64,000 nt of DNA from Chiua virens (taxonomy: Eukaryota; Basidiomycota; Agaricomycetes; Boletales; Boletaceae), in the NCBI GenBank assembly GCA_019787685.1, contig JAHNUO010000009.1, forward strand, positions 620,001-684,000. The letters are read 5' to 3'. Under the pieces are notes generated by a model. It saw only the letters and a list, made by a program, of their open reading frames with translations. It was not told where the DNA came from and ran no database searches. Of this stretch, positions 1,804 to 54,683 are shown piece after piece. Position 1 is the first letter of the stretch; the number at the start of each line of letters is the position of its first letter. Both the position numbers and the translations under genes were made by a program.

Positions 1804-4800
1804 ATGAAAAGGTTTATAGCTCGCCTTCGTTTCCCGTACTTTCGCTCCAAGGCTCCTACGAGACCTTCCGCAGAATCTCTCGCAGAGCCACCCACAGAAC
1901 CTCTTGCAGAACCGTCCACAGAATCTCTCGCAGCGCCACCCGCAGAACCTCTCACAGAGCCACCCGCAGAACCTTTCGCAGGACTTTCCGCCGAATCTCC
2001 CGAAGAATCATCCGCGGAACCTATTATACAGATGGACGGTATTAGAGAGAAATTCGGGCGCTTCAGAATCCTTATCATTGGCCGGGCCAATGCCGGGAAG
2101 ACTACGATACTCAAGCAAATCTGCAACTCTACGGACGAGCCAGTGTTATATGATGGAGATGGGAATGAGGTATGCTTAAAATGAGATGCCTGTGGTGATG
2201 TGGGTGCACTGATAGTGTGCGATCAGGTTGGTCTAGCACAGATCCAGGAATCCCGGGACGTGAGTTACATAAATGGTTACCGTGAAGTCCTTATCGGTAA
2301 CATTTTTCTAACGCGTCTCAAGCGCGGAATGCATGATATCAAGAACGAATTGGTCTTTCGAAGCAACCCAAATTTTATCTTTCACGACTCGCAGGGCTTC
2401 GAAGCTGGCAGCATAGGAGAATTTGAACAGATGAAGGAGTTTGTGTCCGGGCGTGCGAAGACAGCACACCTCAAGAAGCAAATCCATGCTATCTGGTGAT
2501 GAGAGATAGCAGCATTTATGTGACACTGACACTGACATGTGACTGAATAGGTACTGTATTCCAATGGACCAGTACCACCGTGCTGTCTTGGCTGCTGAGG
2601 AAATGTTTTTCAATGAATGTAACACAGGGAGTGGTAAGTTCTCCTTGTGCATGTATGATGTCTTTTTTCTCATACTATTTGCAGTGCCTGTGGTACTTGT
2701 ATTCACAAAATGTGATGCACTTCTGTTACAAGGCATGGCAGCTTTGACACCTGAGGAACAAAAGCTTCCCCAAGGGAGAAGGATTGTAATTGGACAGCAG
2801 AATGCTGAGAGAATGTTGAAAGAGAATCCTACATGGGAGAGGGTGCAAAAGATGATGTATCCACCAAATGCATATGTGGAGTTGAGAGGTGTGTATGTAT
2901 ACATGTCTCTCATGGTCAAACTGATTTTAAATGTACAAAGAACTGCACAAGTCAAATGAGGGGTGTAAACTTCTCTTGAAAAGGACTGTGGAGGCCTTAC
3001 ATGAAGGAGCATTGCAGATGCTACTTGTGACTACACAACACACAAACATATTGCTTTGCATTGAGTATGCACTTACCAGGTAATATATATGGAATTTATG
3101 AACTATGGGTTATATCTATTAATTTTTTATAGGGTCTTGATACCTTTCATTGAGGATACACATGAGAACAAGGAACCTTTGACAGACACTGCCCAGCAGA
3201 TAGTGGTGAAAGGAATTGGATCATGGTTTCCACATACTAAGGTGTGTGAATTTCTACAGTGCAAATGAGATCTATAGTGAAAGAAATGCTTGTCCTGTTC
3301 ATGAAAGGTAAGACACTCTTGTGATTGTAAATGGGTTCCCAACCTGAGGATGGTGATCCATGCTCCTCTATTCTTGCCCCTATCCTGCCATTCATAGCTT
3401 GTAAGTGCTCTGATTGTGAATGAACTTCCAGAAGGATACTGATCCATGTCTGTCTGTTCTTGCACCTGTCCTGCCATTCACAATTCATAGTATGTAAGTG
3501 CTCTGATTGTCAATGGGTTTCCAGAATCAGATGCTGATGCATGCTGCTCTGTCCTTGCCCTTGTACTGCCATTCGTAGGAAGTAAGTGTTCTGATTGTGA
3601 ATGGGCTTCCAGAAGAATGCTGATCCATACTGCTCTGTCCTTGCCCCTGTCCTGCCATTTATAGCTTGTAAGTGCTCTGATTGTGAACAGGCTTCCAGAA
3701 GGATACTGATCTATGCCCCTCTGTCCTTGCCTGTGTCCTGCTATTGATAGCGAGTGAGTGCTCTGATTGTAAATGGGCTTTGGACCAGAAGGATGCTGAT
3801 TCATGCCCCTGTGTCCATGTCCCTGTCCTGCCATTCATAGCTAGTAAGTGCTCTGATTGTAAATAAGCTTCCAGAAAAATGCTAATCCATCCATCTTTAT
3901 CCTTGCCTCTGTCCTGCCATTCATAGCAAGTAAGTGCTCTGATTGTAAATGGGCTTTGGACTAGAAGGATGCTGATCCATGCCCCTCTGTCCTTGCCCCT
4001 GTCCTGCCATTCATAGCTAGTAAGTGCTCTGATTGTGAACAGGTTTCCAGAAGCATGCTGATCCATGCCCCTCTGTCCTTGTCCCTGTTATGTCATTCAT
4101 AGGAAGTAAGTGCTCTGATTGAGAATAGGCTTCCAGAATTGAATACTGATCCATGTCCCTCTGTCCTTGTATCTGTGCTGCCATTCATAGCAAGTATGTG
4201 CTGTGATTGTGAATGGACTTCCAGAAGAATGCTAATCCATACCCTTCTGTCCTTGCCCCTGTCCTGCCATTCATAGCGAGTAAGTGCTCTAATTGTGAAT
4301 GGGTTTCCAGAAGAATACTGATCCATACCCCTCTGTCCTTGCCACTGTCCTGCCATTCATAGCGAGTGAGTGCTCTGATTGTGAATGGGCTTCTAGAAGG
4401 ATGCTAATCCATGCCCCTCTGTCCTTGTCCCTGTCCTGCCATTCATAGTTAGTAAGTGCTCTGATTGTGAATGGGCTTCTAGAATGGTGTTGATCCATGC
4501 CCCTCTGTCCTTGTACTTGTTTTGCTATTCATAGCTTGTAAGTGCTCTGATTGTGAATGGGCTTCCAGAAGGATGCTGATTGATGCCCTGTTGTCTTTGC
4601 CCCTATCCTGCCATTCATAGCAAGTAAGTGGTCTAATTGTGAATGGGCTTTGGACAAGAAGGATGTTAATCTATGCCTCTTTGTCCTTGCACCTCTTCTG
4701 CCATTCATAGGAAGTAAGTGCTCTGATTGTAAATGGACTTCCAGAAGCATGCTGATCTATCCTCTCTGTCCTTGCCCTGTCCTGCCATTCATAGCAAGTA

Positions 4801-7800
4801 AGGCCCTGATTGACTTCCAGAGTTGCATGCTGATCCATGTTCCTCTGTACTTGCCCCTATCCTGCCATTCATAGGAAGTAAGTGTTCTGATTGTGAATGG
4901 ACCTCTAGATGGATACTGATTGATGCCCCTCTGTGCTTGCCCCTGTCCTGCCATTCATAGCAAGTAAGTGGTCTCATTGCAAATAGGTTTCCAGAATTGA
5001 ATGCTGATCCATGCCCCTCTGTGCTTGCCCCTGTCCTGCTATTCATAGCGAGTAAGTACTCTGGTTGTGAATAGGATTCCAGAAGGATGCTGATTCATAC
5101 CCCTCTGTCCTCATACCTGTTCTGCCATTCATAGCGAGTAAGTGCTCTAATTGTGAATGGACTTCTAGAAGGATGCTCATCCATGCCCCTCTGTCCTTGC
5201 CCCTGTCCTGCCACTCATAGCAAGTAAGTGCTCTGATTGTAAATGGACTTTGAACCAGAAGAATGCTAATCCATGTCTCTTTGTTCTTGCCCCTGTTCTG
5301 CTATTCATAGCTTGTAAGTGCTCTGTTTGTGAATGGGCTTCCAAAAGGATACTAATCTATGCATGTCTGCCTTTGCCCTTGTTCTGCCATTCATAGCAAG
5401 TAAGTGCTCTGATTGTGAATGGGATTTCAAAAAAATGTTGATTCATACCCCTCTGTTCTTATTCCTGTCCTGCCAATCATAGCAAGTAAGTGCTCTGATT
5501 GTAAATTGCCTTTGGACTAGAAGGATGCTGATCCATACTCCTCTGTCCATGTCCATGTCCTGCCATTTATAGCAAGTGAGTGCTCTGATTGTGAATAGGC
5601 TTTTGACCAGAAGGATACTGATGCATGCCCCTCTGTCCTGCCAATTATAGCAAGTATGTGTTCTGATTGTAGATTGCCTTTGGATTGGAAGGATTCTAAT
5701 CCATGCCCCTCTGTCCTTGCCTCTGTCCTGCCATTCACAGCAAGTAAGTGCTTTGATTATCAATGGGCATCCAAAAAGATGCTAATCTATGTCTTTCTGT
5801 CCTTGCCCTGTCCTGCCATTTATAGCTTGTAAGTGCTCTGATTGTAAATGAACTTTGGACCAGAAGGATGCTAATTCATGCCCCTCTGTGCTTGCCTCTG
5901 TGCTGCCATTCATAGCGAGTAAGTGCTCTGATTGTGAATGGGGTTCCAAAAGAATGTTGATCTATGCCCCTTTGTCCTTGCACCTGTGCTACCATTTATA
6001 GCAAGTAAGTGCTCTGATTGTGAATGGGCTTTAGACCAGAAGGATGCTAATCCATACCTATTTGTCCTTGCCCCTATCCTGCCATTCACAGGAAGTAAGT
6101 GTTTTGATTGTGAATTGGCTTCCAGAATTGGATACTGATCCATGCCCCTCTGTCCATGTCCCTGTCCTGACATCCATAGCTTGTAAGTGCTCTGATTGTG
6201 AATGGGATTCCAGAAGGATATTGATCTATGCCTCTTTGTTTTGCCCCTGTGCCCATTTAAAGCAAGTAAGTGTTCTAAATGTAAATTGAACCAGAAGAAT
6301 GCTGATCCATGCTTCTCTGTCCTTGCCTCTATCCTGCTATTTATAGTATGTAAGGGCTCTGATTGTAAATGGGCTTTTAGAAGGATGCTGGTTCATGTCC
6401 CTCTGCCCTTTCCCCTGTTCTGCCATTTATAGCTTGTAAGTGCTCTAATTATAAATGGGCTTCTAGGAGGATGCTGATCCATGCCTATCTGTGCTTACCC
6501 CTATCCTGCCATTCATAGCAAGTAAGTGTTCTGATTGTAAATAGGCTTTGGATCAGAAGGATACTGATCCATGCCTGTCTGCCCTTGCCCCTGTTCTGCC
6601 ATTTATAGCAAGTAAGTGCTCTGATGGTGAATGGGCTTCCAGAATTGGATGCTGATCCACACCCCTCTGTGCCTGCCCCTGTTATACCAATCATAGCAAG
6701 TAAGTGCTCTGAGTATGAATGGGCTTTGGACTAGAAGGATGTTGATCTATACCCATCTGTCCTCACTCTTGTCCTGCCATTCTTAGGAAGTAAGTGTTCT
6801 AATTGTGAATAGGCTTCTAGAAGGATGCTCATCCATGCCCCTTTGTCCTTGTTCCTGTGATGCCATTCATAGGAAGTAAGTGATCTGATTGTCAATAGGC
6901 TTCCAGAGGGATGCTAATCCATGCCCCTGTGTCCTTCCCCCTGTTATGCCATTTATAGCGAGTAAGTGTTCTGATTGTGAATGGGCTTCCAGAATTGGAT
7001 GCTAATCCATACCCCTCTGTGCTTGCCCCTGTCCTGCCATTCATAGCAAGTAAGTGCTCAGATTATGAATGGGCTTTGGACCAGAAGAATGCTCATTCAT
7101 ATCCCTCTGTCCTTGTTCCTGTCTTGTCATTCATAGCGAGTAAGTGCTCTGGTTGTGAATGGACTTCTAGAAAGGTGCTGATCCATGCCCCCTCTGTCCA
7201 TGCCCCTGTTCTGTTGTTTATAGCTTGTAAGTGTTCTGAGTATGAATGGGCTTCTAGAAGGATGCTGATCCATGCCCCTCTGTCTTGCATCTCTTCTGCC
7301 ATTTATAGGGAGTAAGTGCTCTGATTGTGAATGGGCTTCCAAAAAATGCTAAGCCATGCCTGTCTGTCCTTGCCCCTGTCCTGTCATTCATAGCAAGTAA
7401 GTGCTGTGATTGTGAATAAGCTTCCAGAAGAATGCTGAGCCATGCTCCTCTGTCCTTGCCCCTGTCCTGCCATCTATAGCTAGTAAGTTCTTTGATTGTA
7501 AAAAGGCTTCCAGAAGGATGCTGATCCATGCCTATCTACCCTTGCCCCTGTCCTGCCATTCATAGCTTGTAAGTGCTCTGATTGTGAATGAGCTTCCAGA
7601 AGGATGCTGATCCATGGCTCTGTGTCCTTGCCCTTGTCTTGCCATTCATAGCAAGTAAGTGCTCTGATTGTGAATGGGCTTTGGACCAGAAGAATGCTGA
7701 TTCATGCTGCTCTGTCCTTGCTCCTGTCTTGCCATTCATAGTATGTAAGTACTCTAATTGTGAATAGGCTTTCAGAAGCATGCTGATCCATGCCCCTCTG

Positions 7801-10800
7801 TCCTTGCCCCTGTCTTGCTATTTATAGCTTGTAAGTGTTCTAATTTGGAATTGGCTTTCCAAAGGATACTGATCTATCCCTATCTGTTCTTGCCCTGTCC
7901 GACCATTCATAGGAAGTAAGTGCTCTGATTGTAAATGGGCTTTGGATCAGAAGGATGCTGATCCATGCCTGGCTGCCCTTGCCCCTGTTCTGCCATTCAT
8001 AGGAAGTAAGTGTTCCAATTGTGAATATGCTTCCAGAAGGATGGTGATCTATCCCCCTCTGTTCTTGGCCCTTCCTGCCACCCATAGGAAGTAAGTGCTC
8101 TGATTGTGAATAGGCTTCTAGAAGAATGCAGATTCATGCCTGTCTGTCCTATCATTCATAGGAAGCAAGTGCTCTGATTTTGAATGAACTCCAGAAAGAT
8201 ACTAATACATGCCTCTCTGTCCTTGTCTTTGTGCTGCCATCCATAGCTTGTAAGTGCTCTGATTATGAACAGGTTTCCAGAAGGATGCTGATCTATCCTA
8301 TTTTACTCTTGCCCCTGTTCTGCCATTTATAGCGAGTAAGTGCCCTGATTGTGAATAGGCTTCCAGAAAGATGCTGATCCATGTCCCTCTGCCCTTCTCT
8401 CTATCCTGCCATTCATAGCGAGTAAGTGCTCTAATTGTAAATGGGCTTCCAGAATGCAATACTGATCCATGCATATCTGCCCTTGCCCCTGTCCTGCCAT
8501 TCATAGCAAGTAAGTGCTCTGATTGTAAATGGGCTGCCAAAGGGATGCTGATCCATGCCTGTCTGCCTTTGCCCTGTCTTGCCATTCTTAGCAAGTAAGT
8601 ACTCTGAAGAATGCTCATCCATGCTCATCTGTTCTTGACCTTGACCTGCCATTTATAGGAAGTAAGTTTTCTGATTGTGAATGGGCTTCCAGAAGGATAC
8701 TGATTCATACCCCTACATCCTTGCCCCTGTTTTGCCATTCATAGCGAGTAAGTGCTCTGATTGTGAATAGGCTTCTAGAAGGATGCTCATCTATGCCCCT
8801 TTGTCCATGCCCCTATCCTGCCATTTATAGCAAGTAAGTGCTCTAATTGTGAATGGGCCTCTAGATGAATGTTGATTGATGCCCCTCTGTGCTTACCCCT
8901 GTCCTGCTATTCATAGCAAGTAAGTGTTCTGATTATAAATGGGCTTCCAGAGGATGCTGATTCATGCATGTCTACTCTTGCCCCTGTTCTGCTATTCATA
9001 GTATGTAGGTGCTCTGATTGTGAATAGGCTTCCAGAAGGGTGCTCATCCATGCCCCTCTGTCCTTGCCCCTGTCCTGCCATTCATAGCAAGTAAGTGCTC
9101 TCATTGTGGATTGTAAATGAGCTTCCAGAAGAATACTGATGCATGCCCCTTTGTCTTTACCCTTGCCCTGCCTTTCATAGGAAGTAAGTGCTCTGATTAT
9201 AAATGGGCTTCTAGAGGGATGCTAATCCATGCCTGTCTGTCCTTACCCCTGTCCTTCTGCCATTCATAGCAAGTAAGTGCTCTGATTGTGAATGGGCTTT
9301 CAGAAGAATGCTAATTCATGCCCCTCTGTCCATGTGGCTGTTCTGTTATTTGTAGGGAGTAAGTGCACTGATTGTGAACAGGCTTCTAGAAGGATGCTAA
9401 TGCATGCCTATCTATCCATTCCTTCCATTCCATTCATAGAAAGCAAGTACTCTAATTGTAAATGGGCTTACAAAAGAATGCTAATCCATACCTCTGTGGT
9501 CCTGCACCTGACCTGCCATTCATAGTATGTAAGTGCTCTGCTTGTGAATAGGCTTTCTAATCTATTCCCTTCTGTTCTTTGCTCTGTTCTGCCATTCATA
9601 GCGAGTAAGTGCTCTGATTGTGAATGGGCTTACAGAAGGATGCTAATCCATACCTCTGTGTTCCTGCACCTGTCTTGCCATTTATAGAAAGTAAGTGCTC
9701 TGATTGTGAATGGGCTCCAGCCAGATGCTGATCCATGCCCCTCTGTGCTTGCCCCTGTCCTGCCATTCATAGGATGTAAGTGCTGTAATTGTAAATGGGG
9801 TTCCAGAAGGATGCTGATCCATGTCTCTCTGTGCTTGCCCCTGTTTTGCCATTCATAGCTTGTATGTGCTCTGATTGTGAATGGGCTTCTAGAAGAATGC
9901 TGATCCTTACCCCTCTATCCTTACCTGTGTCCTGCCATTCATAGCAAGTAAGTGCTCTGATTGTGAATAGGTTTCCAGAAGGATAGTGATCCATGCCCCC
10001 CTGTCCTTATCCCTGTTCTGCCATTTATAGCTTGTAAGTGCTCTGATTATAAATGGGCTTCCAGAAGGATGCTGATCCATACCCTTCTGTCCTTGCACCT
10101 GATCTGCCATTCATAGCAAGTAAGTGCTCTGATTGTAAATGTGCTTCCACAAGGATGCTGATTTATACTACTACTCACCACAATTTTCTTTATGATGCCT
10201 ATAATAGCTTGTATGTATTCTACTATATTTAACCCTATTGATTATTTTAACATTCTATAGGATGTGAGCTTTTACATTCATTTTAACTTCAAATATGTTG
10301 ACTTTTATTTATTTCAATTTACAGCAGGTATGAATGAATAACTTTTGATTTTTGCTTCATTTGACTTATTCTTTATAGGAGGTTTGTACTGCATTGGAAT
10401 TTTGTAGTACAGATAATAACATCAAGTTCATAGATATTGCAGGCTTCTAGTGTATGTTGATCCATTTTATCCTTCTAATTTTCTTCTTTTTCAATTAATT
10501 CACAATATTCTCAGCCCTCTATTCCTGTTGAAGGTGCACTAGCAAGAAAATGTACATTCATTGTGAGTACAATGATTTCATAACACCAGTCTGCCTAATA
10601 TTTTATTCCATAATTTAGTCTCCTTTGAAAGATAGTACTGGATGGCATACAGCACTTCATTTAGGCATTGGTCAGTTTTCTAAATGTGCAATTCAGTAAC
10701 CATCTCTATTAACATTTGTAGGCATTGCAATTATCCTGGAACATTCTTTCTTTTTACACCAGCAAGGTGTTCAAGACCCAATCATGGTAGCAACCCAGGT

Positions 10801-13443: not shown

Positions 13444-16400
13444 TTAAAATAAAGTATCAGTGTCGACTTCTTCACCATACTCGTCAAGGCCCGAGTCTGA
13501 ATCGTTTTCGTTGTCACTTGATAGCGCCAAGTTGCTCCCATCTGATTCCGAGTCATTGTCACATTCCGACTCGGAGTCCTGATTTGTGCCAGGCTCGTGC
13601 TCTCCACCAGCGTCTGCCTCATCCGAATCAATTTCCATTTCTTCATCGTCAGCGCCATCCTCTGCCAGCGATCCATCAATGTTTTCATTCATCGGGAAGG
13701 AATTGTGACAATGACCGACACCATGACCAATCATATTGTGTCTTATAAACATGTCTCTGTCGGCAAAGCTAGCAGAACTCAGTTAAGTATAGTCGGACAG
13801 TCACGGTAAGTCGCTTACACGTTCACGTAATAGGCACTCCAATCATCGACCTCACCTAGGGCCCTTCTGAGCGAAGGACCTGCCTTTAGCAAGGTAGTGG
13901 TGCGACCATCAGAAAAGGCAGGAATGAGGTGACATGCTCGAATCACAAGGGAGGGATTGAGAAAACCGAAAGCGGCGGGGTCTGAGTCTGGCACAAAGCC
14001 GACTTTTGGTAATCGTGCTGATGTTGTACCGTAACGGTGACCAGGGACGATTCCATACCAGCATACCCAAAGGATTTCAATAGGCTGTACCGATAGATCT
14101 TGCGAGTCTGGTCCGCAATGACGAACGTGAGCATGAAACACCCGCAACACGCGGGCATACCAATACGGATGATGACCGGGTCCAGTTTCCCACGACAGCA
14201 CCATTACATCTTTGTGTGTGTGTGAGGACTGATTATGTCCTGCTCCCTGCGTACATCGTACATCGTATAATTGACCTGCATGGTTGCTACAGAGTATAGA
14301 CGGTCGTCAAGGATCCACACACAGTTGTGTTGATCGTCGGTAAAGATATAATATTCTGCTTCGAAATCAAGGTTGAGTAGACAGTACAATAGGTGGTCCT
14401 TTAGCTTCAGGATAAAAGACTATGATATGATTAGCAGTGAGGACTTGGAAGAAAAATGGAAGAGAAGCACCCTCACAGCAGAATCCCCTTCATGTTCCCA
14501 CAAAAAAGAGAATATGTCCACTGGATTTCTGAGTGCGTCAGAGACAAAGTGGTGTAGTTCTGGGTCACAAGGAAGCAATACATCACCGCTGACTGCCCTA
14601 CCACAGCTATCCGAGCCGAGGTGCCAGAAGTGTTGCCATCTGGCCTCCTGCTTTGTTATTTGCCTAATGGCGTTATTCTTGTTCGTCAGGGTATAAAGAG
14701 ATTTTATATGGCGGTGGGAAAGTTTGCCCTATGAATTTTTTAAAATAAAAAAACGGTAAGGTGTGGAGAATGTTTCATACAATCTGAGTGGAGTAGGAAT
14801 CTGTGGTACCGAATTGAATGATAGATTGTCCATAATCACTGATGGCATGAAATTTGTAGGTCTTCAGGTTAAGTCCTTTTGCCTTTGGTGCAGAACATTG
14901 TCCATTCTTGAGTGGGTCTTCAGCTTGCATTCGGCACTGACGAGCCGCACATTCCTTCGGGAGCTCAGATGTTTGATACGCCTTGGTGGTTTGCTGTCTG
15001 AATTTCCGCAAAGCATGACTGAGTTGCTTGCACGCCCTGTCCAAGTGCACGAGAGATGACTCGGTGTGCATGTGGAGTTTAGCAAACACGTGCCATTCGG
15101 CACAGCAGTATAGTACAGTCATAATTAACCCTTCGTGGGCCTTTGGAAAAAGTCCTTCAAAGACCGGGATAGAACACTGTCACTGTTAACCGCAATCACA
15201 ATCAAGGAAAACTAAGATACTTACTTGCAAGAGATCTTCAAAGTCTCGGGCAGCGAGTTGCTTCATCTCTGAAGCATTATTCAAAAAGCGATGAATAACA
15301 CCACATCCAAAGCTGGGCACCTGCCGAAAGCTGACCAACATCAGATTTGACAGCAGGAATCCCACAATACCATCGACATACCGTCCATCCAATTGGGCGA
15401 CCAGCTGCCCAGAAGGGTCGACTGCATATAAGATCCGTATCAGGTGGGTAAACACCACCTTCCACGTCCCAAGCTCAAACTCATGCATAAGATCCACTAC
15501 CAGCATGCAGAAGTGGTTGAAGCCGAATTTCTGGAGCTTCTCAGAAAAAGAATTCTATACTCACACAGCGATCAGAATGGGTACTGCACAGGGGCCAGAA
15601 ATCATGAACGTTACCAAAGTAGGTACAAGGGATGCTGTGTCGAGTAGTCGGCGTACTGTGACACCATCCACTGCTCTCCCTTGCTGGTATATGAAGTCCC
15701 TTGCTCGCCTGACCGTCTCGAGGGAATATGTCTGAAGTTCTCCAAGGCGAAGTCGCATGTCATGAAGAAAGCCGGTATGATCTAATTTTGTCTTCGGGAT
15801 CAAACATTGTGGACAAAGATACAAACCTCCGTCATGGATTGTTGCCAGCAAAACTCTATGCCAATCAACATCAGTAGATATGGGGAAGGAATGAGAGAAC
15901 GGCATACTTCTCAGGGTAATCTGCTGAATATGTAAAGATTCTAGGATAGATCCTACGAAAAATACTGTCAGCACACTTCAATACTATACCGTGTTCATAC
16001 ATGTATAGAAATTCTTCGTCTAAAAGAATGTTCCACACGGTGTGCATCAGTTCACGTCGACAGTGTGCTAGTATATGCCGAATTGCAGTCTTCGAAAATT
16101 GGCCCAGAGTGGTGATAAATTCCGTGATTGCGTCCGGCAACTGACAAATCAACCAATTAAGTAAGCCTGAGTACTGAGTACTGGATACTGAATGTTCACC
16201 GAAGGTATAAATGCGACATGGTGACAAGTGTGACCAACGGAAGGCTGGGCGCGGGAGTACTTGGACATATTTCCAAAAAAAAAGGTAAAGGGGCCAAGCT
16301 TTAGCTGTTCCGAATGTCGCCAGTGTGGTTGTGTCCGATGAGAACATGATTGCTGCAATCACTTTATCAAGCTTGCAGTTTGGTTCGTTTGGTTGTTTCT

Positions 16401-16512
16401 GCAGGTCATCATGCGCTTTTAACCAGGCATCCAAAGTGTACAACTCATCGAAAACTCTGTGTTCAGTGCTGTTACAACTTTTCTCTTTTGCCTTGTCGAC
16501 TCCATTTCCCAA
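13444..16512 (-). pseudogene. Plavaka-type transposase, C-terminal two thirds
   Basis: Minus-strand exons give consecutive blocks known from Plavaka elements of Agaricomycetes. From the N-terminal side these are EHRVFDELYTLDAWLKAHD, CRRELMHTVWNILLDEEF, RRIYPRIFTYSADYPEK, a CPQCLIPKTKLD zinc-binding segment, VDLMHEFELGTWKVVFTHL (near 15500), ASEMKQLAARDFEDLLQ, an AEWHVFAKLHMHTESSL region (about 15080), GTTDSYSTQ (near 14800), PHYWYARVLRVFHAHV-like and PKVGFVPDSDPAAFGF blocks (13815-14200), and an acidic tail (13444-13700). Introns separate the blocks. The element belongs to the CACTA-related/KDZ-like group and would encode a cut-and-paste transposase. The reading is largely conserved, but the coding region is cut off from its N-terminal part by the LTR at 16524-17525. 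Confidence 0.75.
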
Positions 16513-26166: not shown

Positions 26167-26356
26167 TGAGTACTAATCACACTAGCAGACCTTATAAGAA
26201 TTGTCATGGTTTTCTGACAGCAAGCCAGACTTACCCTCTCTCCACTTTGCCAACTACTTGTGACATGAGTACTAATCACACTAGCAGACCTTATAAGAAT
26301 TGTCATGGTTTTCTGACAGCAAGCCAGACTTACCCTCTCTCCACTTTGCCAACTAC
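26167..26356 (+). repeat. Two-copy 99-bp tandem duplication
   Basis: TGAGTACTAATCACACTAGC starts at 26167 and again at 26266. The two 90-bp copies are practically identical to CCAACTAC. A 9-nt spacer follows the first. The second is interrupted at its TA by the Tc1/mariner element, and the remainder (CTTGTGAC) continues after the element at 27967. Confidence 0.85.
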
Positions 26357-32301: not shown

Positions 32302-34838
32302 ATGTTTCCCGAATCGCGCCAGACTTCTAATGACGGTGAGTAGGTGTGCGAGACCATTGAGAGTGGGATACTGATGAAGACTCAAGAATCATACGGAGGT
32401 ACTTCACATCGTTTCAATGGCATCTACCGGGAGGAACGAAGTCCGATCCAAGATCGAGGCGAGAGAGGTTCCAACTCCACTAATCAGCAAAGTATTGAAA
32501 AAGACACATTCAACGTCGATGGGAAAGAGATCATACTTTCGGTTGCATTCCTCATGGAAGGCGAACACATCTTGGGCGGAGGATGGGAGGGCAATATTGG
32601 ACGATGGCAATTGGACGATGGCAAGGGAGTTGGGATGCCATTAGATGCGGGAGGGATTGTCAACAACATTGCTATATCAAGAAATGGGAAGTGGATCGTC
32701 GGCGGATCGGGTCGAGGACGCGTGTTGATGTGGAGTGCGCTGAACCATGAGCGGATGGGCGAGATGAAAGGACATGCAGATGCAGTGGGTGTGGTGGATA
32801 TCTCTCCAGATGGGATCAAGATCGCTAGCGGATCGGTTGACAAGACGGTCTGCATCTGGTTTCGTCGGACGGGCGAGCGACTACTTACGCTGAAACATGA
32901 CAACGATCTGGCCGCAGTCAAATTCTCACCTGACGGAAGCCTTCTTGCCACTGCCACGTGGCTTCGCGAATCTGTTCGCATCTACAACAGCAAGGACGGC
33001 CGTCTTGCTGCTGAATTTCCGATCCAAGTTGGCTCATGTTTTAACCAGTGCCTTGCGTGGAATGACAAAACACACCTCTACGCCATCTCTTTGGATGGCA
33101 GAATTCACTACCTCGATGTCACCACCGGAGAAACACTATCCCAATGGCCGATCCGCACCGACGGCGCAGAACTTAAACGTGGGTGCATCGCTCTGCCAAG
33201 GGATCGTGCATTCATCGCAGCCTCTGCCAACTCGTCAATATCATTTTGGAATACGACGACGCACACGAAAATCGGGTCTAGCATCAATTACGATGACAGG
33301 GTCAGGGCAATGGCGATTTCAGAAAATTACGACATCGTGATTGGTCACGGCAAGACAATCACTGTCCGCGACCTTGGGGAAGTACTCCCATGTCGCTATG
33401 TTCACAATGTAAGTGTATCTGTTCAATATACCTATGATTTTAACTCACACCCAACTGGCTGCAGAATTTGAGTCCCGAAGAAAAAATAACATCCGCCCGT
33501 ACCACACAGGACGAGCAGTCACGTGCGTGGAACACAAACCTTGGTTTAGACCACTGCCATGCTAACACCAGTTATCTGACTGAATCTATCAGACGAAAAA
33601 ATTTCCAATCTAGAGAAAGCTGTGCAGGAGCTTAAGAATGGACTTGCAGTGCTCCAGGGCCACTATGAGGCACAGTTGCGTGAACTTGCCTCTACAACAA
33701 AGGAGCTTGGGACCTTGAAGACATCCAATGATGCCAAAGATCGCAAAATCGAAGCTCTTACTGCCGAAGTGGAAAAGTGGAAACGTTCCGATGCCGCCAA
33801 AGGAGAGGAACTCGCCGCTGCAAACAAGATACTCGAGAAGCGCCATCACGATTCGCAGGAGCTCGTTATTGTGCGCGAGGAACTTTGCTTCTCCCAATCT
33901 CAAACGATCGATATCCGGGAATGGTACGGCAAACAGTTTAACCAGCTCAAGTCCGACGTCGAACAAAGTCAGCGCATACCGTTTCTCGTGCAAAATTTTA
34001 TCACCCTAGCGGACGCACGTGCGGAGATGAATATCATTGAGACACTCCAACGGCTCAACGAGAGCATTCAGTGGAGCTCGATATTCATCGCAGACTGTGT
34101 CATCCATAATTTCCAGCCCCGCGTTTCGAACCCGACGGAGGACCAGCTTTCTATTGCAAAGAGGGTCGCAGAATCTATCGGTCAATCCTTGGTGAACCGC
34201 ATACGGAGCAACTCGCACACTGATCTGGCGGTGTATCTTCCAGTCGCATTTCACGCGTACCTCCTCTACTACCTGTGCGGCATCATGACTTCGTGGTCCT
34301 TGGAGAGCGGGCCCAACCATCTTATCCGCAAGATGTACAAAGCCGTGCGGAAACTAGGTGATGACACAAGTTTCAAACGACCCCAACTGTTCTGCTGACG
34401 ATAGGCTTAGAATCTCAAACGATATCTGGACGCTGGCGATCTCTTACCTACGCCTGTATCTCACCTACCTGTTCAAGTAACCCGGACATGTTAATCATGC
34501 CGACAATGGACGGGCTCTTGGATATCATTGTTGTCGCTGGTTGCGCCCCTTCCACCTCCGCTGCTCGAGAAATGATCTCATCGAAATTCCGGGATCGTAT
34601 ATCATTTATCCTTACCACCGCGGGGCAGCTCAGCAAGTCAATCATGGATGCCCTGTCCGCGGACTATCGAGTAGAGACCGTTCGTCCAGCAGAAATGTTA
34701 GATGAGGGAACAATGGAGGTCAACTCGGTTGGGGGTAGGAAGTCGAGGAGCCAGAGGGTGTTGTGCACCACTCAGATGGGCTTGTCAAAGGAGGTCATCA
34801 CGCAAACGAAAGTCGGATCCAACAAAAGAATACTGTGA
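32302..34838 (+). CDS. WD40-coiled-coil protein, paralogue B (768 aa)
   Basis: Exons 32302-32335, 32387-33408, 33465-33522, 33593-34357 and 34411-34838 total 2307 nt and keep frame. Residues about 45-350 form WD40 repeats; visible blades include ISPDGIKIASGSVDKTVCIW and FSPDGSLLATATW. Residues about 365-500 are a Lys/Glu/Leu-rich coiled coil. Residues about 510-760 are a conserved domain with IQWSSIF, SIGQSLVNRIRSNSHTDLAV, ISGRWRSLTYA and ISFILTTAGQLSKSIMDALS. It is probably a scaffold, but the partner is unknown. The start is the ATG of a 34-nt first exon of the same length as in paralogue C. The C-terminus ends KVGSNKRIL. In paralogue C the homologous reading continues about 14 residues further, so a one-base deletion near 34830 is likely. 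Confidence 0.75.
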
Positions 34839-35897: not shown

Positions 35898-38568
35898 ATG
35901 TTTCGCAGAATACTCGGAACACCAAAGAAAAGTGAGTCGAAGGGCAGGAGTCACAGGACTAATTAAGGCACAGTCCTGACGAAAACTCCAAGCGTCTGAT
36001 GACGACGGTTCCCCGTCCCGTGGCGCTGAGCGAGCAGGAGGAAGCCTGATCCAAGATCAGGGGAAAGAAACCGGAAGTTCAAAGACGGGTCCCCAAGTGA
36101 CCAACTTGAACGAAGGCACTTCCGTCATTACCAATCAGCAAAGTGTCGAGAAAACCATACTTGTAATCAATGGGAGAGAGAGAATATATTCAGTCGCATT
36201 CCTCGGCGTTCCAGAGGACCCGGACAAACACATTCTGAGCGGAGGCCGGGAAGGCAAGATTCGACAATGGCAATTGGAGGATGGCAAGGAAGTTGGAATG
36301 CCGATAGACGTGGGTGGGTTTGCCAACAACATCGCAGTATCAAAAGATGGGAAATGGATTGTAGGAGGATCGGGTCGTGGAGATGTGTTGGTGTGGAGTG
36401 TTGAGGACCACGAGCGGGCGAGCGAGATGAAAGGACATACGGACGGTGTTATTGGGGTGGACATCTCCCAAGATGGGACAAAAATCGCGAGTGGATCGAA
36501 TGACAAGACCGCCTGCGTCTGGTTGCGTCACACGGGCGAGCGACTCCTGACGCTGCAACACGATAACGATGTGGTCGCAACGAGATTCTCACCCGACGGA
36601 AGCCTTCTCGCAACTGCCACCTGGAATCACGATTCTATTCGTGTGTACAGTGTCGAAGACCGCCGTCTCATTTCTGAATCCCCAATCAAAGTCGGCTCAT
36701 ATGGAAACCAAAGCCTTGCGTGGGATCATCAAAGACACCTCTACGCCATCTCCCGTGACGGTCGAATCCACTACCTTGATGTATCCACGGGAGAAACACT
36801 CTCACAGTGGCCCATCCGCACCGACGGTGCGGAAAAAATTGGATGCATCGCTCTGCCAAACAATTGTAGATTCATCGCAGCCTCTGCCCATTCGTCAATA
36901 TCATTCTGGGATACAACGACACACATGAAAACTGGGCCTGACATCGACTGCGATTCCAGGGTCTCGACAATGGCGATTTCGGAAAACTACAATATTGTAA
37001 TTGGACATCGCAAGAAAATCATAGTTCGGAACCTTGGTGACATCCTCCCTTCTCACTACGTTGACTGTGTAAGTAATAACTTGAATCTCGATATCAAGTG
37101 CCTCATTACCTCGACATCAACCACGATACAGCATAACCGTGATGTGGAACCCGGAGAAAGAATAACGTTTCCTTGTACACAGGACGAGCAGTTAAGTGCG
37201 TGCATAACCAATCTTGGTCGAAACCATCAGCATGCTGACATTGTTTTTCTGACACCTGACACCCGACTGGGAATCAATCAGACGAAGAGACATCAGACCC
37301 CGAAAAAATTGAAGGCGTGCGGGAACTCAAGAGTCAACTTGCAATGCTCCAGAGCCACCATGAGGCGCAGTTAGCTTCCGTACAAAAGGAGCTCGAGACC
37401 TTGAAGTCATCTAATGAAGCGAAAGATCACAAAATTGATGCACTTGTTGCCGAAGTTGACCGGTGGAAATGTTCTGACGCGGCTAAAACAGAGGAGCTCG
37501 CCGCTGCACACAAGGAGCTGGAGGAGCGCCGTCGCGATTCACAGGAACTTATCGCCGTGCGCGAGGAACTTCAATTCTCTCAATCTCAAACCATCCAGAT
37601 CCGTAGGTGGTATGATGAGCAGTTCAGGCGGCTCAAGAGTGTCGTCGAAGAAAGTCAGCTAAAAATATTTCCTGTGCAGAATTTCATCACCCAGGCAGAT
37701 ACACGCGCAGAAACGATGATAGTCGAGACGCTCCAACAGCTGAACGAAAGAATCCAGTGGAGTTCGACATTCATGGCAGACCGTATAGTCCATAACCTCG
37801 CGGCAAAGTTCGCAGACCCGACGGAAGAACAAATATCTGCAGCACGAAGAGTCTCGAAATGCGTCGGCCAATCCTTAGTTAACCGTATACGGAGCAACTC
37901 ACACACTGATGTGGCGGCATATCTTCCAATCGCGTTCCGTGCGTATCTCATCTATCACCTGTGGGTAATCATGTCCTCGTGGTCAACGGAGAGCGCACCC
38001 AACCGGCTTCTTTGCGAGATTTACAAAGAAATACGGAAATTAGGTGACGAATCAGAATTCAAACACCCTCAATTGTTCCGCTGACGGTAGGATAGAATCT
38101 CAAACGAAATCCGGAAGCTGGCGGTCGCTGACTTACGCGGCTATCTCACCTACCTGCGCCAACAACCCGGACATGCTCATCACATCTACGATAGATGGTC
38201 TGTCTGACGTTGTCGTCACAGCTGGTTGCGCCCCCACCGTCTCCGCTGCAAACGCGATTATCTCGACCAAGTTCTACAATAGGATATCTTTCATCCTTAC
38301 TACTGCGGGACAGCTCGCCAAAACGACCATGGATGCCCTTTCAGGCGATTACAGAGTTGAAGTTGTCCGTTCAGCTGAGATGTTCGATGAGAGAACAATG
38401 GAGGCGGAGAAGAGCGGTCAAGGGAGAGGAGCGACAAGCCAGCATGTGTTGTGTACCACTCAGTTCGGATTGTCAAAGGAGGTTGTCACGCAGTCGAAAG
38501 TTGGACACAAGAAGAAGAACATCATGACGGTGACGAACTTGGTCAAGGCAAAGGTTATCACAGTGTAG
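35898..38568 (+). CDS. WD40-coiled-coil protein, paralogue C (802 aa)
   Basis: Exons 35898-35931, 35993-37068, 37132-37195, 37282-38043 and 38096-38568 total 2409 nt and keep one frame to TAG. The short first exon reads MFRRILGTPKK. Intron 1 has a CTGAC branch point and an AAG acceptor. Residues about 55-365 are WD40 repeats (ISQDGTKIASGSNDKTACVW, FSPDGSLLATATWNHDSIRV). Residues about 395-515 are a coiled coil, and 520-790 the conserved C-terminal domain (CVGQSLVNRIRSNSHTDVAA, PIAFRAYLIYHL, ISFILTTAGQLAKTTMDALS). If the last intron (38044-38095) is retained, translation stops at 38082-38084 after a 13-residue tail that is similar in paralogues A and B. Function unknown. The domain order suggests a protein-interaction scaffold. 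Confidence 0.8.
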
Positions 38569-39805: not shown

Positions 39806-41470
39806 CTAAAACAGAACCGCCATCTCTGCAGAGACAACGCCAAGCCCCACAGTTGTCATCACTAACAGCGGTAAGAGATTCCAGAAAGCGAAGTCCCTCT
39901 GTCTCACATGGATCCCTTTTTGACCCAAAATGGCGCGCCAGAGCAGACCAGCAAGAGAAGCCGAGAAGGTGAAGCTGACCGCACCAATGTTGGATGCGAC
40001 GGCGAGCGCAATGGCAGCCGCGCGGTTGGCGTCGTACGGAAGATCCGCCTCGCGGACAACTCGAGTGAGAAGGATGGTGGCTCCAATATTGGTGCCTGCG
40101 ATGTTGCACAGAATGATATCGAGAACGCCGATCAACCAGATCGTCGGATGGACTTGTTTGTTAGAGGCACGAACGAGCCACTGGGAGAAAATGCTGACCC
40201 ATCCCTGGTGATCGAGGGCTTCGATGAGGATAAACTGGGAAAGTGTAAAGAGAATGGGGTAAAAGGGTAACAACGGCAGCGCAGTGATGAAAGTCGGGAA
40301 TCGCTCATCAAGTCGGGCGCGAAGGATGGCCATAGCTGACAGGTACTCCCTGATGATCGGTGGTGCCTTGATATCTCCTGGTGATGAGGGAGGGAGTGCC
40401 GGGCCCGTCGTGGCCCTGCGTGAAGACGCCGGTTCCTTCATGTGCCAGATATTGCTTCGCGCCGAAGGACCCGAAGAACTACTACTATCATCTTCAAGGT
40501 CCTCCTCCCTCACACTAATCGGGTCCCCACGGCCAAGCATCGGGATGCCACAAGAGTACCTATAATGGTCCCATCCAAGATCGAATGAGAATTTAGCGAC
40601 AGCGAACGGCAAACTGATCATCCAGACGTCGATTCCGAAGAAACTAACGATGAGACAGAGGGCAAGGGTAGTACCAAGCATGAAACTGCCAACGCAAGCA
40701 CCAACGGGATCCAACAATGCGTGCCGTGGGTCTTGGTGAGGGGTACGAGCCAATTTCCGAGGAACATACTTGCGAAATTGGAACACAAGCGCGGCAAAGC
40801 AAAAGATATTACATGCAAGGAAGGGGAGGATGGTATATGCTGTAAAGGCCGCGTTGTTGACGCCGAAGCCTTCCGTTATAATAACCTTGCGCACAGTCAG
40901 TTGGTCTAGGTATGGAACTAATTTTGGAAGGCGTACGTTAACGGGATTTCCGACGAATAGAATCATGCTGGCAGCGTTGGCAACGGCAAATTCTGCCACG
41001 ATCCATGCTCTAGGGTCGAGCATCGCGACCTCCGTGTAATAGACCAAGAATGCAGTCCCAGAGAGTACGACGACATCATTTCCCAACAGAATGGAGAGTA
41101 AAGTGAGCATGATATAGAAATAAAGATACATCCTCCACCCGTTGTCGCCACCCTTGTTGCTGACCCAGAATGCCGTAGCACGAAGTACCCCGGTAATGTC
41201 GAGGGTTATTGCCATGTAAGCGAGAGAGAAGAATAAGATGAGGATGTTATAAGGCTTGACGCCGTCGGTGCCGACAATTCCGTTGCGAATGACCGCTAGG
41301 TCAAGACATTCAGCGGCCCATAGGATGGCGATGGCGAGGATTGGAGCGGTAAGGAGATTGATTGGTATCCGAGGTATGAAGCGGGGTGTGGGTATGGAAA
41401 TTGGACGAATCACGAATAAGGTAGAGACGATGAACAACACCAAGGAGGCGATAGCGTATCCAGAAATCAT
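39806..41470 (-). CDS. ArsB/CitM-type ion transporter (IT superfamily)
   Basis: Single-exon minus-strand gene, 554 residues from the ATG at 41470 (MISGYAIASLVLFIVSTLFV). About 11-12 hydrophobic segments are visible, split by a hydrophilic Ser-rich loop (EEDLEDDSSSSSGPSARSN). Motifs typical of the arsenite/Na+:H+ (ArsB/NhaD) and citrate-Mg (CitM) permeases are present: LGNDVVVLSGTAFLVYYTEV in the first half, FAVANAASMILFVGNPVNV, and the inverted-repeat counterpart CNIAGTNIGATILLTRVV in the second half. The product is predicted to be a membrane anion exporter or antiporter; the substrate cannot be read from the sequence. It stands between paralogues C and D of the WD40 family with no shared expression signal. 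The absence of introns is unusual beside its neighbours. Confidence 0.85.
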   Translation of the reverse strand: MISGYAIASLVLFIVSTLFVIRPISIPTPRFIPRIPINLLTAPILAIAILWAAECLDLAVIRNGIVGTDGVKPYNILILFFSLAYMAITLDITGVLRATAFWVSNKGGDNGWRMYLYFYIMLTLLSILLGNDVVVLSGTAFLVYYTEVAMLDPRAWIVAEFAVANAASMILFVGNPVNVRLPKLVPYLDQLTVRKVIITEGFGVNNAAFTAYTILPFLACNIFCFAALVFQFRKYVPRKLARTPHQDPRHALLDPVGACVGSFMLGTTLALCLIVSFFGIDVWMISLPFAVAKFSFDLGWDHYRYSCGIPMLGRGDPISVREEDLEDDSSSSSGPSARSNIWHMKEPASSRRATTGPALPPSSPGDIKAPPIIREYLSAMAILRARLDERFPTFITALPLLPFYPILFTLSQFILIEALDHQGWVSIFSQWLVRASNKQVHPTIWLIGVLDIILCNIAGTNIGATILLTRVVREADLPYDANRAAAIALAVASNIGAVSFTFSASLAGLLWRAILGQKGIHVRQRDFAFWNLLPLLVMTTVGLGVVSAEMAVLF

Positions 41471-41559
41471 GAAGAGTCCCGTGCTCAGGGGAAACACTGA
41501 GTGTGCACAAAGAAAGCCGAAGTGGGGAGGGAGATTCAGAGTGTGAATGTACCGTCACA

Positions 41560-52500: not shown

Positions 52501-54683
52501 TCAATCGATACGCAACACAACGTTAGCTATGTCACCTCTAAACCCTTCGCTCCCGATAGTCGCTGATGGTGCAGCGAAGGACATGTTGGCTTGCGTGAGA
52601 TAATCGCCCCATATGTCTAGAGTGGTTTGATACCAATATGTCTCTACTTGACCGCCAGTGGACTCTCCAACGACGGTCAGGCACGTGTAATCTCGAGTGG
52701 CCTGAATGGTCACGTTTGTCCAGACAGTCCAGGCTTGAGTTGGAATGGAGGAGGAAGGGGATAATATTCCGCGTTGGAGGAAAACGTAAGAGAGGACGCG
52801 TACAAGGACGAGTCCGTGCCTTTGAACAGCTCACTATTCGTAGTGTCTCCCGTCGTCTGCACATCGCTAGCACGGGGCCGCACACTGAATGAGAGGGTGT
52901 AAGGGGGGCCGACAGATTCCACGCCAGTGTGAAATGGAAAGGAAGGCAAGTCTTCGAATACGAAGACAACGTCGCCCGAGCTTTTGCCCGTTACAACACG
53001 ATTAAGGTTCTGTCCTGGGGTATGGGCATTCAGCGGGGAATATGCGGCTTCGAACTGTTCCATCGTCAGCTCTGTAGAGCGGAGCCCAGATCCTGCCCAG
53101 GTCTTCTCTGCAAATACAGCAAGAGATTGCGATAGTTGGTAGTAGGTCTCCAAGGGTGTCGTGGCATTCGGTCCCCAGTCATTCCAAAGCGCAAAGATAG
53201 CACCTCGGATTCCCGAATTGTCGTAGGCTGTGTTATTTGCGGGATCATTCACGGTGAAAATGTTCGGGCTCCATCCACCGTCCTCCGCACTTGCGCCGGA
53301 GAAGAGCAAGGAAAGATTAAGTGTCTGTGGGAAGCCACCTTCCGCTGGGATCTTTCCCTCGAGGTAAAGGAAAGCTTGTTCGGAGTTAATTACGCGATAG
53401 CCAGATTCCAGAAGATCAATAGGAATGGAAGCGGAGGGGAAGTCCCAATGCTGAATTGTCACGTTAGTTGAGATGAAGGATGTGTTGCTTGGCTCGAACG
53501 TCCCCCAGGCACGGATGCTCTTCCCGCTAACCTCTCCAATGTATGTCGACATCTTATTGACAAATGCGATGTACTCCTCCGCGAACAACGACGGGTACTC
53601 GTCAGCGCCAATGGAGACCTCGCTAGACGAGAACCAAGGCAAGAACTGGGACCAAATGGATTGGATGGTAGGTATTGTTTCGGGGTAGCTCAGATTGAGC
53701 GAGTCTGGTGTCCCGTTCAGCATCAACTCGGGAAGCCACTGCGAAATAACCAGGGAATGACCAGGAGTGTCGAATCTCAGGTATAATGGTTACTCCACGT
53801 CGTGCGCAATGTGACTGTAGATCGACGAACTCGGTGAAACTCCACGACTCATTTCGATAAGGCACGAGACTTGAAACCGACGAATCTCGGGGTGGTTGGA
53901 ATCGGAACCCAGAGTACAGCGAACGCCATTCTGGACCGTAGAGGAGCGAAGGAATCCAGAGATTGTCAGAAGCATGCAGATGGAATTCGTTAATCTTGAA
54001 AAAAGACGCATAGGTGCAAAGTTCGGCTAAGAGGTAGATTAGCAGGACGAGTTAGCTCACATGAAGAGGTGCTCACCAAGGAATTCAGTCGTGTACCAAT
54101 GGCGTCCAGCATCAAGCATGAACCCACGCACTTCCCAGCCAGGACTATCAGTGCCGTTCCCAGCTGGAATGGTGTATATGCCATTAGATCTTGGACCGGA
54201 CAACACGAGCTGTTGCAGCAGGGTTCTTGTTCCCCACCACGCGCCAATCGGACCACGTCCAGAAATTACATACGAGGAATTTGAGATAGTGAAGTCATAA
54301 CCCTCGGGCGTAGCAGCGCCCGAGTAGAGCGTGTGATTGCTTGACGGGCCAAGCGTGAGGACGATAACGGAACCATCATGGTTGATCCTCGTCTGGTTGA
54401 ACGACGCGACTTGAACTTGAGGGAGCGTTAATGATGTTAATTGGACTAGGTCGGATCGGAAGGTCTCCGCAAAGTCAAGTAGGGTAGGCGCGCTGGACTG
54501 AGAGCCGCTGCTTTGGGATGCAAAGATTTCATCGACGAAAATCTGTGTTTCTGGGCTGAAGACGAATGACCGGCTAAGTTCGTCGGAAAAGAACAATTGT
54601 AGAGACGGGATCTGTGGTTGAAACTTTGTTGCATGAACGCCGGCCACCAACAAGAGAGGAACAAGGGACTGGAGAAACTGCAT
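52501..54683 (-). CDS. GH20 beta-N-acetylhexosaminidase (probable frameshift)
   Basis: Minus strand, ATG at 54683 (MQFLQSLVPLLLVAGVHATK, a signal peptide). Exon 1 (54683-54077) includes the N-terminal GH20 domain and WEVRGFMLDAGRHWYTTEFL. A 50-nt intron (54027-54076) leads to ELCTYASFFKINEFHLHASD and a segment with VDLQSHCARRGVTIIPEI. The catalytic Asp-Glu pair lies in SIGADEY (near 53610), and GIRGAIFALWNDWGPNATTP follows. After the catalytic barrel comes a carbohydrate-binding-like beta-rich domain (PPYTLSFSVRPRA, DYTCLTVVGESTGGQVETYW). Near 53771 the family pattern continues as DTPGHSLVISQWLPEL in another frame than IIPEI: one extra base with no room for an intron. This is either an assembly error or a recent inactivation. 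The product would be a secreted chitin-oligomer-degrading enzyme. Confidence 0.78.

What the first reader, a model, noticed from the sequence alone, without database searches (positions are those of the whole stretch)
3308..10433. Gene built from 83 consecutive single-codon exons in a tandem intron array
Seen: an 86-90 bp unit repeated about 80 times inside a GTPase gene. Every unit has GTAAGT-type donor, CTRAY, pyrimidine tract and AG, and neighbouring units are always separated by exactly 3 nt. Inference: each unit is an intron and each triplet a one-codon exon, giving an 83-residue insert in frame between exon 7 (phase 0) and the downstream exons (phase 0). Spliceosomal exons this short are known only as rare isolated cases; a long uninterrupted run would need sequential intron-definition splicing, because the two sites flanking each triplet cannot be bound at once. 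I know of no described system of this kind.
Basis: partly seen in the sequence, partly recalled or inferred. Interest (0 to 1): 0.97.

Follow-up and report, generated by a model that had tools for sequence, protein, structure and literature searches.

The report
Hypervariable protein from one-codon exons
In a bolete mushroom, a GTPase gene family carries runs of up to 83 three-base segments, each fenced by splice-site sequences, that are predicted to be joined as one-codon exons; the codons differ widely between genes while the introns between them can be identical, which would be a new way to diversify a protein.

Summary
From 3398 to 10381 there are 83 AG-NNN-GT/GC junctions with exactly 3 nt between introns, in frame between GTPase exons and a downstream domain; the last four introns are not repeat units, yet the 3-nt spacing holds. 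The genome (Chiua virens, Boletaceae) has about 68 loci of this family; all 38 that I read carry such arrays. In 28 non-duplicate arrays 0 of 693 triplets are stops (about 46 expected); in 36 loci, 1 of 872. In one array 26 introns are identical while codons differ in 82% of pairs. Two homologous segments are 100% identical for 900 bp before the array but differ in codons. Most residues use one codon, mostly avoiding decoy splice sites. Uninterrupted ORFs of relatives, probably cDNA, carry a variable insert at this place. I conclude that the triplets are very likely spliced one-codon exons, forming a hypervariable segment that changes codon by codon. RNA from this species was not available; a recognition role is only a guess. 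Ten searches of open-access papers listed no such system.

The parts
1804..3241 (+). Seven ordinary exons of the GTPase (1804-2169, 2227-2259, 2323-2495, 2551-2633, 2685-2888, 2941-3079, 3133-3241), ending in phase 0 after ...GIGSWFPHTK
   Evidence: NCBI model P0001, 94% identical over 380 aligned positions, ends some residues before this exon's end
3242..3397 (+). First intron of the array, 156 nt, contains a fused partial unit whose acceptor is lost (TTCATGAAAG next to GTAAGA at 3307/3308)
   Evidence: same arrangement in 10 of 13 other loci looked at, once with GC
3398..10207 (+). 79 one-codon exons and 79 repeat introns (64-90 nt)
10208..10381 (+). Last four one-codon exons CTT 10208, GAT 10261, CAG 10325, GAG 10379 (L-D-Q-E), separated by non-repeat introns; the second (D) recurs at the array end of most other loci read that far
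10434..10451 (+). 18-nt exon ILQASS
10515..10562 (+). 48-nt exon PSIPVEGALARKCTFI
10619..10670 (+). 52-nt exon SPLKDSTGWHTALHLGI plus one base of the next codon
10722..10929 (+). Tail-domain exon (IAIILEHSFFLHQQGVQDPI...LISKNLI); the 3' end of the gene was not settled

Best explanation
The stretch is a tandem array of 83 three-base segments between conserved splice-site sequences inside a GTPase gene, very likely spliced as 83 consecutive one-codon exons, and it belongs to a family of about 68 loci in the same genome, all 38 of which that I read carry such an array, with diverse codons and, in 13 of 22 arrays measured, introns at least 98% identical. How it works: each unit is a cassette of one codon plus an intron of mostly 83 or 85 nt. 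Because the exonic part is one codon, units can be gained, lost, exchanged or rewritten without breaking the frame (follows from the anatomy). The introns are inferred to be removed by intron definition in several rounds, because two splice sites 3 nt apart can hardly be occupied at once. The joined codons would form a hypervariable low-complexity segment between the G domain and the helical tail (predicted protein; seen in read-through ORFs of relatives). Arrays with homogeneous introns are inferred to turn over by unequal exchange and short gene conversion, like a coding minisatellite, with selection keeping the codons diverse; the window array (81.5% mean intron identity among 36 units of modal length) looks like an older array that no longer turns over but keeps its splice sites. 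A role in recognition of non-self or of partners is a guess from this pattern.
For: 83 of 83 spacings exactly 3 nt, no stop; splice sites far more conserved than intron interior. All 38 loci read carry arrays. 0 stops in 693 triplets of 28 non-duplicate arrays, 46 expected from base composition, 42.3 (minimum 25) in 2000 within-array column shuffles; 1 stop in 872 triplets of 36 loci. L049: 26 units with one single intron sequence, codons differ in 82% of pairs. 1618 unit pairs with identical introns share the upstream codon in 21%, against 17% of 3787 other pairs. Codon diversity 0.36-0.69 in 28 arrays whatever the mean intron diversity (0.000-0.32). L049 vs L050: 900 bp upstream 100% and 522 bp downstream 99.4% identical, codon strings different. 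Mostly one codon per residue (CTT 122 of 129 Leu, GGA 118 of 122 Gly, TAT 74 of 74 Tyr, CAA 54 of 54 Gln, GAT 38 of 38 Asp; Ala and Thr are split); third base A/T in 701 of 723 against 194 of 369 in the gene's ordinary exons; NAG 5 of 723. ORFs on 1.1-2.6 kb contigs of relatives run from WFP through 38-61 residues to the tail in 10 of 30; P0004 has ...FEFAN-LDRA-VIPSSQ, like the array ends L-D-x-x.
Against: No RNA from this species was available. The NCBI model of this gene stops before the array (P0001). That the short contigs of relatives are cDNA is inferred from their uninterrupted ORFs; whether their inserts come from one-codon exons is not known, and none is as long as the window's 83 codons plus flanks. 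19 of 30 such ORFs do not reach the tail by my HMM, and 9 of the 11 that do were used to build it. Genome-annotated relatives that reach the tail (30 of 239) have 11-214 residues there, 9 of 30 more than 31, so a long insert is not confined to the cDNA-like set. One array (L061) holds a TAA triplet and L043 a broken junction. In L056 and L057 many intron positions (47 and 85 of 85) are as variable as the least variable codon position. CCA, GCA and TCA, which put CA before the donor G, do not fit decoy avoidance well. 30 of about 68 loci were not read, though unit matches put arrays in six more. Splicing of 84 introns with 3-nt exons is mechanically demanding. Diversifying selection was not tested by a codon model.
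Confidence: 0.82

Rival explanations
1. The array is one long intron: a minisatellite that grew from an ordinary intron and carries its splice sites only by descent. It is removed whole or in pieces and the triplets never reach protein.
For: The units are tandem copies. The NCBI model ends before the array. No RNA from this species.
Against: Neutral decay would break sites: 81 of 83 junctions exact against 42 of 79 for interior 7-mers. Stops are missing: 0 of 693, 46 expected. The last four introns are not repeat units but keep 3-nt spacing. Codon choice is mostly one per residue, with NAG 5 and NGT 2 of 723. Relatives' ORFs contain an insert at this place.
Confidence: 0.07
2. One-codon exons are real, but inclusion is partial: each pre-mRNA skips many of them, so one gene makes a population of in-frame isoforms by splicing noise or by regulation (as proposed for schistosome micro-exon genes).
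For: Splice sites within an array are much alike and every exon is 3 nt, so any skip keeps the frame.
Against: Conservation of each junction in old arrays suggests that individual exons matter. Nothing here measures isoforms.
Confidence: 0.3
3. The repeat is a host for small intronic RNAs (a snoRNA-like cluster); the 3-nt exons are spacers.
For: Introns are more uniform than exons in young arrays.
Against: Two Rfam matches up to E 1, both far below their gathering scores (best E 0.48). The three consensus introns fold no better than shuffles (z -0.47, 0.81, -0.60). Stop avoidance and codon choice are not explained.
Confidence: 0.02
4. Introner-like elements inserted one by one between codons of a pre-existing coding exon, so the codons are old and the introns new.
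For: Explains identical introns beside diverse codons.
Against: Every listed copy of both intron units lies inside an array of this family (read against 15, 16; the lists are capped). Insertion exactly at every codon boundary would be needed. Codon strings differ between loci with identical flanks, so codons are not old.
Confidence: 0.06

Closest known systems
Schistosome micro-exon genes (MEGs)
   Same: Most of the coding region in very small symmetrical exons, variable proteins (passages of PMC4350168)
   Different: As I recall, MEG exons are several codons long and their introns unlike each other; here the exons are one codon, introns are tandem and often near-identical, and variation lies in the genome itself
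Podospora anserina HET-D/HET-E WD-repeat genes
   Same: Tandem repeats in a gene family with concerted evolution, exchange within and between loci and four selected residues per repeat (abstract of PMC1805685)
   Different: There the repeat is a protein unit of about 42 residues (recalled); here the repeat is an intron and the coding part a single codon; no WD40 or NACHT match
Hypervariable minisatellites with variant-repeat maps (recalled, not looked up)
   Same: Identical flanks, different interior order of repeat variants, more similarity at one end (L049/L050)
   Different: Here the variant position is a codon between splice sites and the array is predicted to be coding
Isolated plant microexons, such as the 1-nt exon of APC11
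   Same: Extremely short exons, often missed by annotation (passages of PMC8831610)
   Different: Single or paired cases in the passages seen, not runs of 20 to 83
Fungal introner-like elements
   Same: Multiplying introns in fungal genomes (abstract start of PMC4457414 in listings)
   Different: As I recall those spread over many genes; here all listed copies lie in one gene family at one place
Immunity-related GTPases (IRG, such as Irga6)

Membership tests
Schistosome micro-exon genes | Most exons very small and symmetrical (multiple of 3) | tested here: met
   83 of 94 predicted exons are 3 nt (7 upstream, 83, 4 downstream); prediction only
Schistosome micro-exon genes | Alternative splicing gives protein variants | not testable with these tools
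   no RNA data
HET-D/HET-E type recognition genes | NACHT domain and WD repeats | tested here: not met
   Pfam scan of the spliced model: no NACHT or WD40 among 10 families up to E 1
HET-D/HET-E type recognition genes | Repeats homogenised within and between loci | tested here: met
   introns 99.96% identical between L049 and L050, 98.4% between L013 and L015; recent duplication could contribute, as flanks are 98-100% identical too
HET-D/HET-E type recognition genes | Positive selection on few codons, shown by a codon model | not tested
   only diversity and stop counts were made
Introner-like elements | Copies inserted in many unrelated genes | tested here: not met
   all listed places of both units lie between G-domain and tail hits of this family; the lists are capped, so unlisted copies were not seen
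Microexons (exons up to 30 nt) | Inclusion in mature mRNA | tested here: inconclusive
   sequence constraint and relatives' ORFs only
Immunity-related GTPases | Shared fold beyond the G domain | tested here: inconclusive

The most novel reading that the evidence does not exclude
A codon-level diversity generator: introns serve as identical spacers that let a recombination or RNA-templated process rewrite a protein one codon at a time, drawing on a set of about twenty one-codon cassettes, and so supply a fungal GTPase family with an open repertoire of recognition segments.
Probability: 0.4. Interest if true: 0.98.

Novelty: categorically new. Interest (0 to 1): 0.96.

Why it matters
If RNA confirms it, runs of up to 83 one-codon exons would push the limits of what spliceosomes are known to do and give a natural test bed for intron definition. 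It would also be a gene family in which introns let selection and recombination act on single codons: codons vary while identical introns keep frame and homology. It may explain why gene models of this large GTPase family often stop at the same place (of 209 tail-less annotated hits, 107 end within 25 residues after WFP, 19 run further, 83 have no WFP), and it offers a candidate repertoire for fungal self/non-self or partner recognition.

Tried and rejected
Paper searches for a described system: (open-access PMC only; 10 of 10 used); nothing on consecutive one-codon exons appeared in the listings. Small-RNA host rejected. A first test of codon-intron linkage sorted ties by codon and so overstated linkage at identity 1.00; one search replaced it. 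Early junction counts included frame-shifted look-alikes; one search removed them. My first gene model read through a 63-nt intron in exon 2, so the query and the protein held 21 extra residues; corrected from P0001. IRG kinship could not be told from a plain G domain. DNA of other fungi was not searched: by their descriptions the collections at hand hold bacteria, archaea, viruses and plasmids, and metagenome scans were capped at 0. Whether C6 and C27 are two haplotypes or a segmental duplication was not decided.
Full report
OBSERVATION. The window (G000:C9:620001-684000) belongs to a 48.3-Mb genome in 136 contigs. Protein hits name it: P0001, JVU11DRAFT_6897 of Chiua virens, is 94% identical to the window's GTPase and lies on a contig of 1961657 bases, the length of C9; the species is a bolete (Boletaceae). 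From 3398 to 10381 there are 83 triplets, each preceded by AG and followed by GT (81) or GC (2). The translation is LYELRLQLEQRRLLQEQ...LQLDQE, made of Q, L, E, R, Y, K, G and D. Repeat introns are 64-90 nt (79 of them); the last four introns are 50-61 nt and unlike the repeat, but the exons between them are still 3 nt long. The upstream exon ends in phase 0, and downstream exons 10434-10451, 10515-10562, 10619-10670 and 10722- continue in frame.

MORE THAN CHANCE. Against an 83-nt consensus, 79 repeat introns hold 740 substitutions and 50 indel events, yet G1, G5, A82 and G83 are kept in 79 of 79, T2 in 77, the branch-like A42 in 78, and no indel falls in the last 8 nt. The junction design is exact in 81 of 83; the same shape placed inside the intron is intact in 42 of 79 units on average (range 24-72). 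The junctions were found by the pattern itself; the only sign of a lost one is the 156-nt first intron.

A GENE FAMILY. The tail exon has 70 matches in the genome, about 68 loci after merging two pairs of fragments, including two near-identical contig pairs; a G-domain exon has 84 (with a query that held 21 intron-derived residues). The 83-nt unit has at least 1189 matches and a related 85-nt unit at least 373 (the two counts may overlap). Every place listed in those two calls lies between a G-domain hit and a tail hit; the rest was not listed. I read 38 loci in whole or part (the window, L011-L018, L020-L022, L025-L027, L029, L041-L061, and L062 with L063 as one); all 38 carry one-codon arrays. 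Five distant members (L055-L059) use a mostly 88-bp spacing and another intron sequence but the same design. Array ends are much alike: in loci read to the end usually L-D-[QEKR]-[EQA], with Y, F or M in place of L in some.

CODING. In 28 non-duplicate arrays none of 693 triplets is a stop, where base composition predicts 46 and within-array column shuffles give 42.3 (minimum 25 of 2000) (L052 and L054, near-identical copies of L051 and L053, were dropped). With eight more loci there is 1 stop in 872, in L061. Of 723 triplets inside the repeats, 701 end in A or T, 21 in G, 1 in C; in the ordinary exons of the window gene the third base is A 103, G 100, T 91, C 75. Most residues use nearly one codon (exceptions: Ala GCT 13, GCA 11; Thr ACT 4, ACA 1; Arg CGA 59, AGA 8). 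NAG (a second acceptor) occurs 5 times in 723 and NGT (a second donor) twice. That this is decoy avoidance is my inference; CCA, GCA and TCA do not fit it well.

HYPERVARIABLE CODONS, OFTEN IDENTICAL INTRONS. In L049 26 units have one single 83-nt intron, but codons differ in 82% of pairs; in L050 29 units have two intron variants and codons differ in 86%; in 13 of 22 non-duplicate arrays measured the mean intron identity is at least 98%. Over 28 arrays codon diversity is 0.36-0.69 per site while mean intron diversity runs from 0.000 to 0.32; 156 of 2333 intron positions reach the least variable codon position of their array, 132 of them in L056 and L057. Among 1618 pairs of units with identical introns the upstream codon agrees in 21% and the downstream in 20%, against 17% and 19% in 3787 other pairs: codon and intron are nearly uncoupled. 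L049 (C6) and L050 (C27) lie in homologous segments, 94.8-97.5% identical over several kb on both sides, but the 900 bp before the array are 100% and 522 bp after it 99.4% identical. Their codon strings align well only at the 3' end (13 codons: score 19, 200 shuffles at most 10); the 5' part scores 7 against a shuffle mean of 2.6 and maximum of 11. In contrast the near-identical contig pairs L051/L052 and L053/L054, whose introns are diverged within the array, share all 52 and 21 codons: 28 and 20 mismatches in all, none in codons, 0 and 1 in splice sites (too few to be a test of constraint on codons). I read this as active, homogeneous arrays that turn over and old arrays, such as the window's, that do not. 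How codons change without their introns is open: short conversion tracts with selection for diversity is my first choice; intron-RNA-templated homogenisation and targeted mutation are not excluded. The narrow codon set speaks against random mutation.

TRANSCRIPT-LIKE EVIDENCE. Of 269 protein hits from three searches (the best 120 of each are listed), 30 come from unnamed contigs of 1.1-2.6 kb (sources jgi, lgn). Several have ORFs that cross the positions of the window gene's introns (alignment of seven), so they are probably cDNA. By my HMM 11 of 30 reach the tail domain, 9 of these 11 being in the HMM's own training set; 10 of the 11 have a WFP motif, with 38-61 residues between it and the tail. 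Of 239 genome-annotated hits 30 reach the tail, with 11-214 residues in between (21 of 30 at most 31); of the other 209, 107 end within 25 residues after WFP, 19 run further and 83 have no WFP. Examples of inserts: P0044 ...HLEYHHREEEEYHHHHHYLEYEEY..., P0004 ERFEVFREFVFEFAN-LDRA, close in style to L044 EFEEFERFEEEF-DQE. This shows a variable insert at the same place in proteins of relatives; it does not show that it comes from one-codon exons there.

KNOWN SYSTEMS. Ten searches of open-access papers listed nothing like it. I saw the abstract of PMC1805685, passages of PMC4350168 and PMC8831610, and PMC4457414 in listings only. HET-D/HET-E genes are the nearest in logic, MEGs the nearest in exon structure.

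VERDICT. One-codon exons are very likely, codon hypervariability beside uniform introns is shown at DNA level, the mechanism of change and the function are inferred.

Noticed in passing
window 3307/3308: AG directly followed by a GTAAGA donor (a zero-length exon, like a recursive splice site) in the first intron; the same in 9 other loci and with GC in L051, of 13 others looked at. In the window it looks like a repeat junction that lost its acceptor.
   Followed up: partly
window 1863-2022: 24-bp coding tandem repeats in exon 1 giving a Pro/Glu-rich N-terminus, also seen in paralogue P0002.
   Followed up: no
L062/L063 (G000:C10:1118500-1136700): Family locus with 18 kb between G domain and tail; runs of 24 and 12 units with a gap, perhaps an insertion.
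   Followed up: partly
window 32344-33471 and 36097-37374 (+): Two ORFs of WD40 repeats, possibly parts of a fungal NLR-like gene.
   Followed up: no
window 15871-16512 (-): Plavaka transposase match, E 1.2e-15.
   Followed up: no
window 26167-26356: 99-bp unit in 1.9 perfect tandem copies.
   Followed up: no
window 39806-41497 (-) and 52710-53726 (-): Citrate-transporter-like ORF and glycosyl hydrolase 20 match.
   Followed up: no
G000:C9:617577-617759 (-): A distant G-domain match 2.2 kb left of the window.
   Followed up: no
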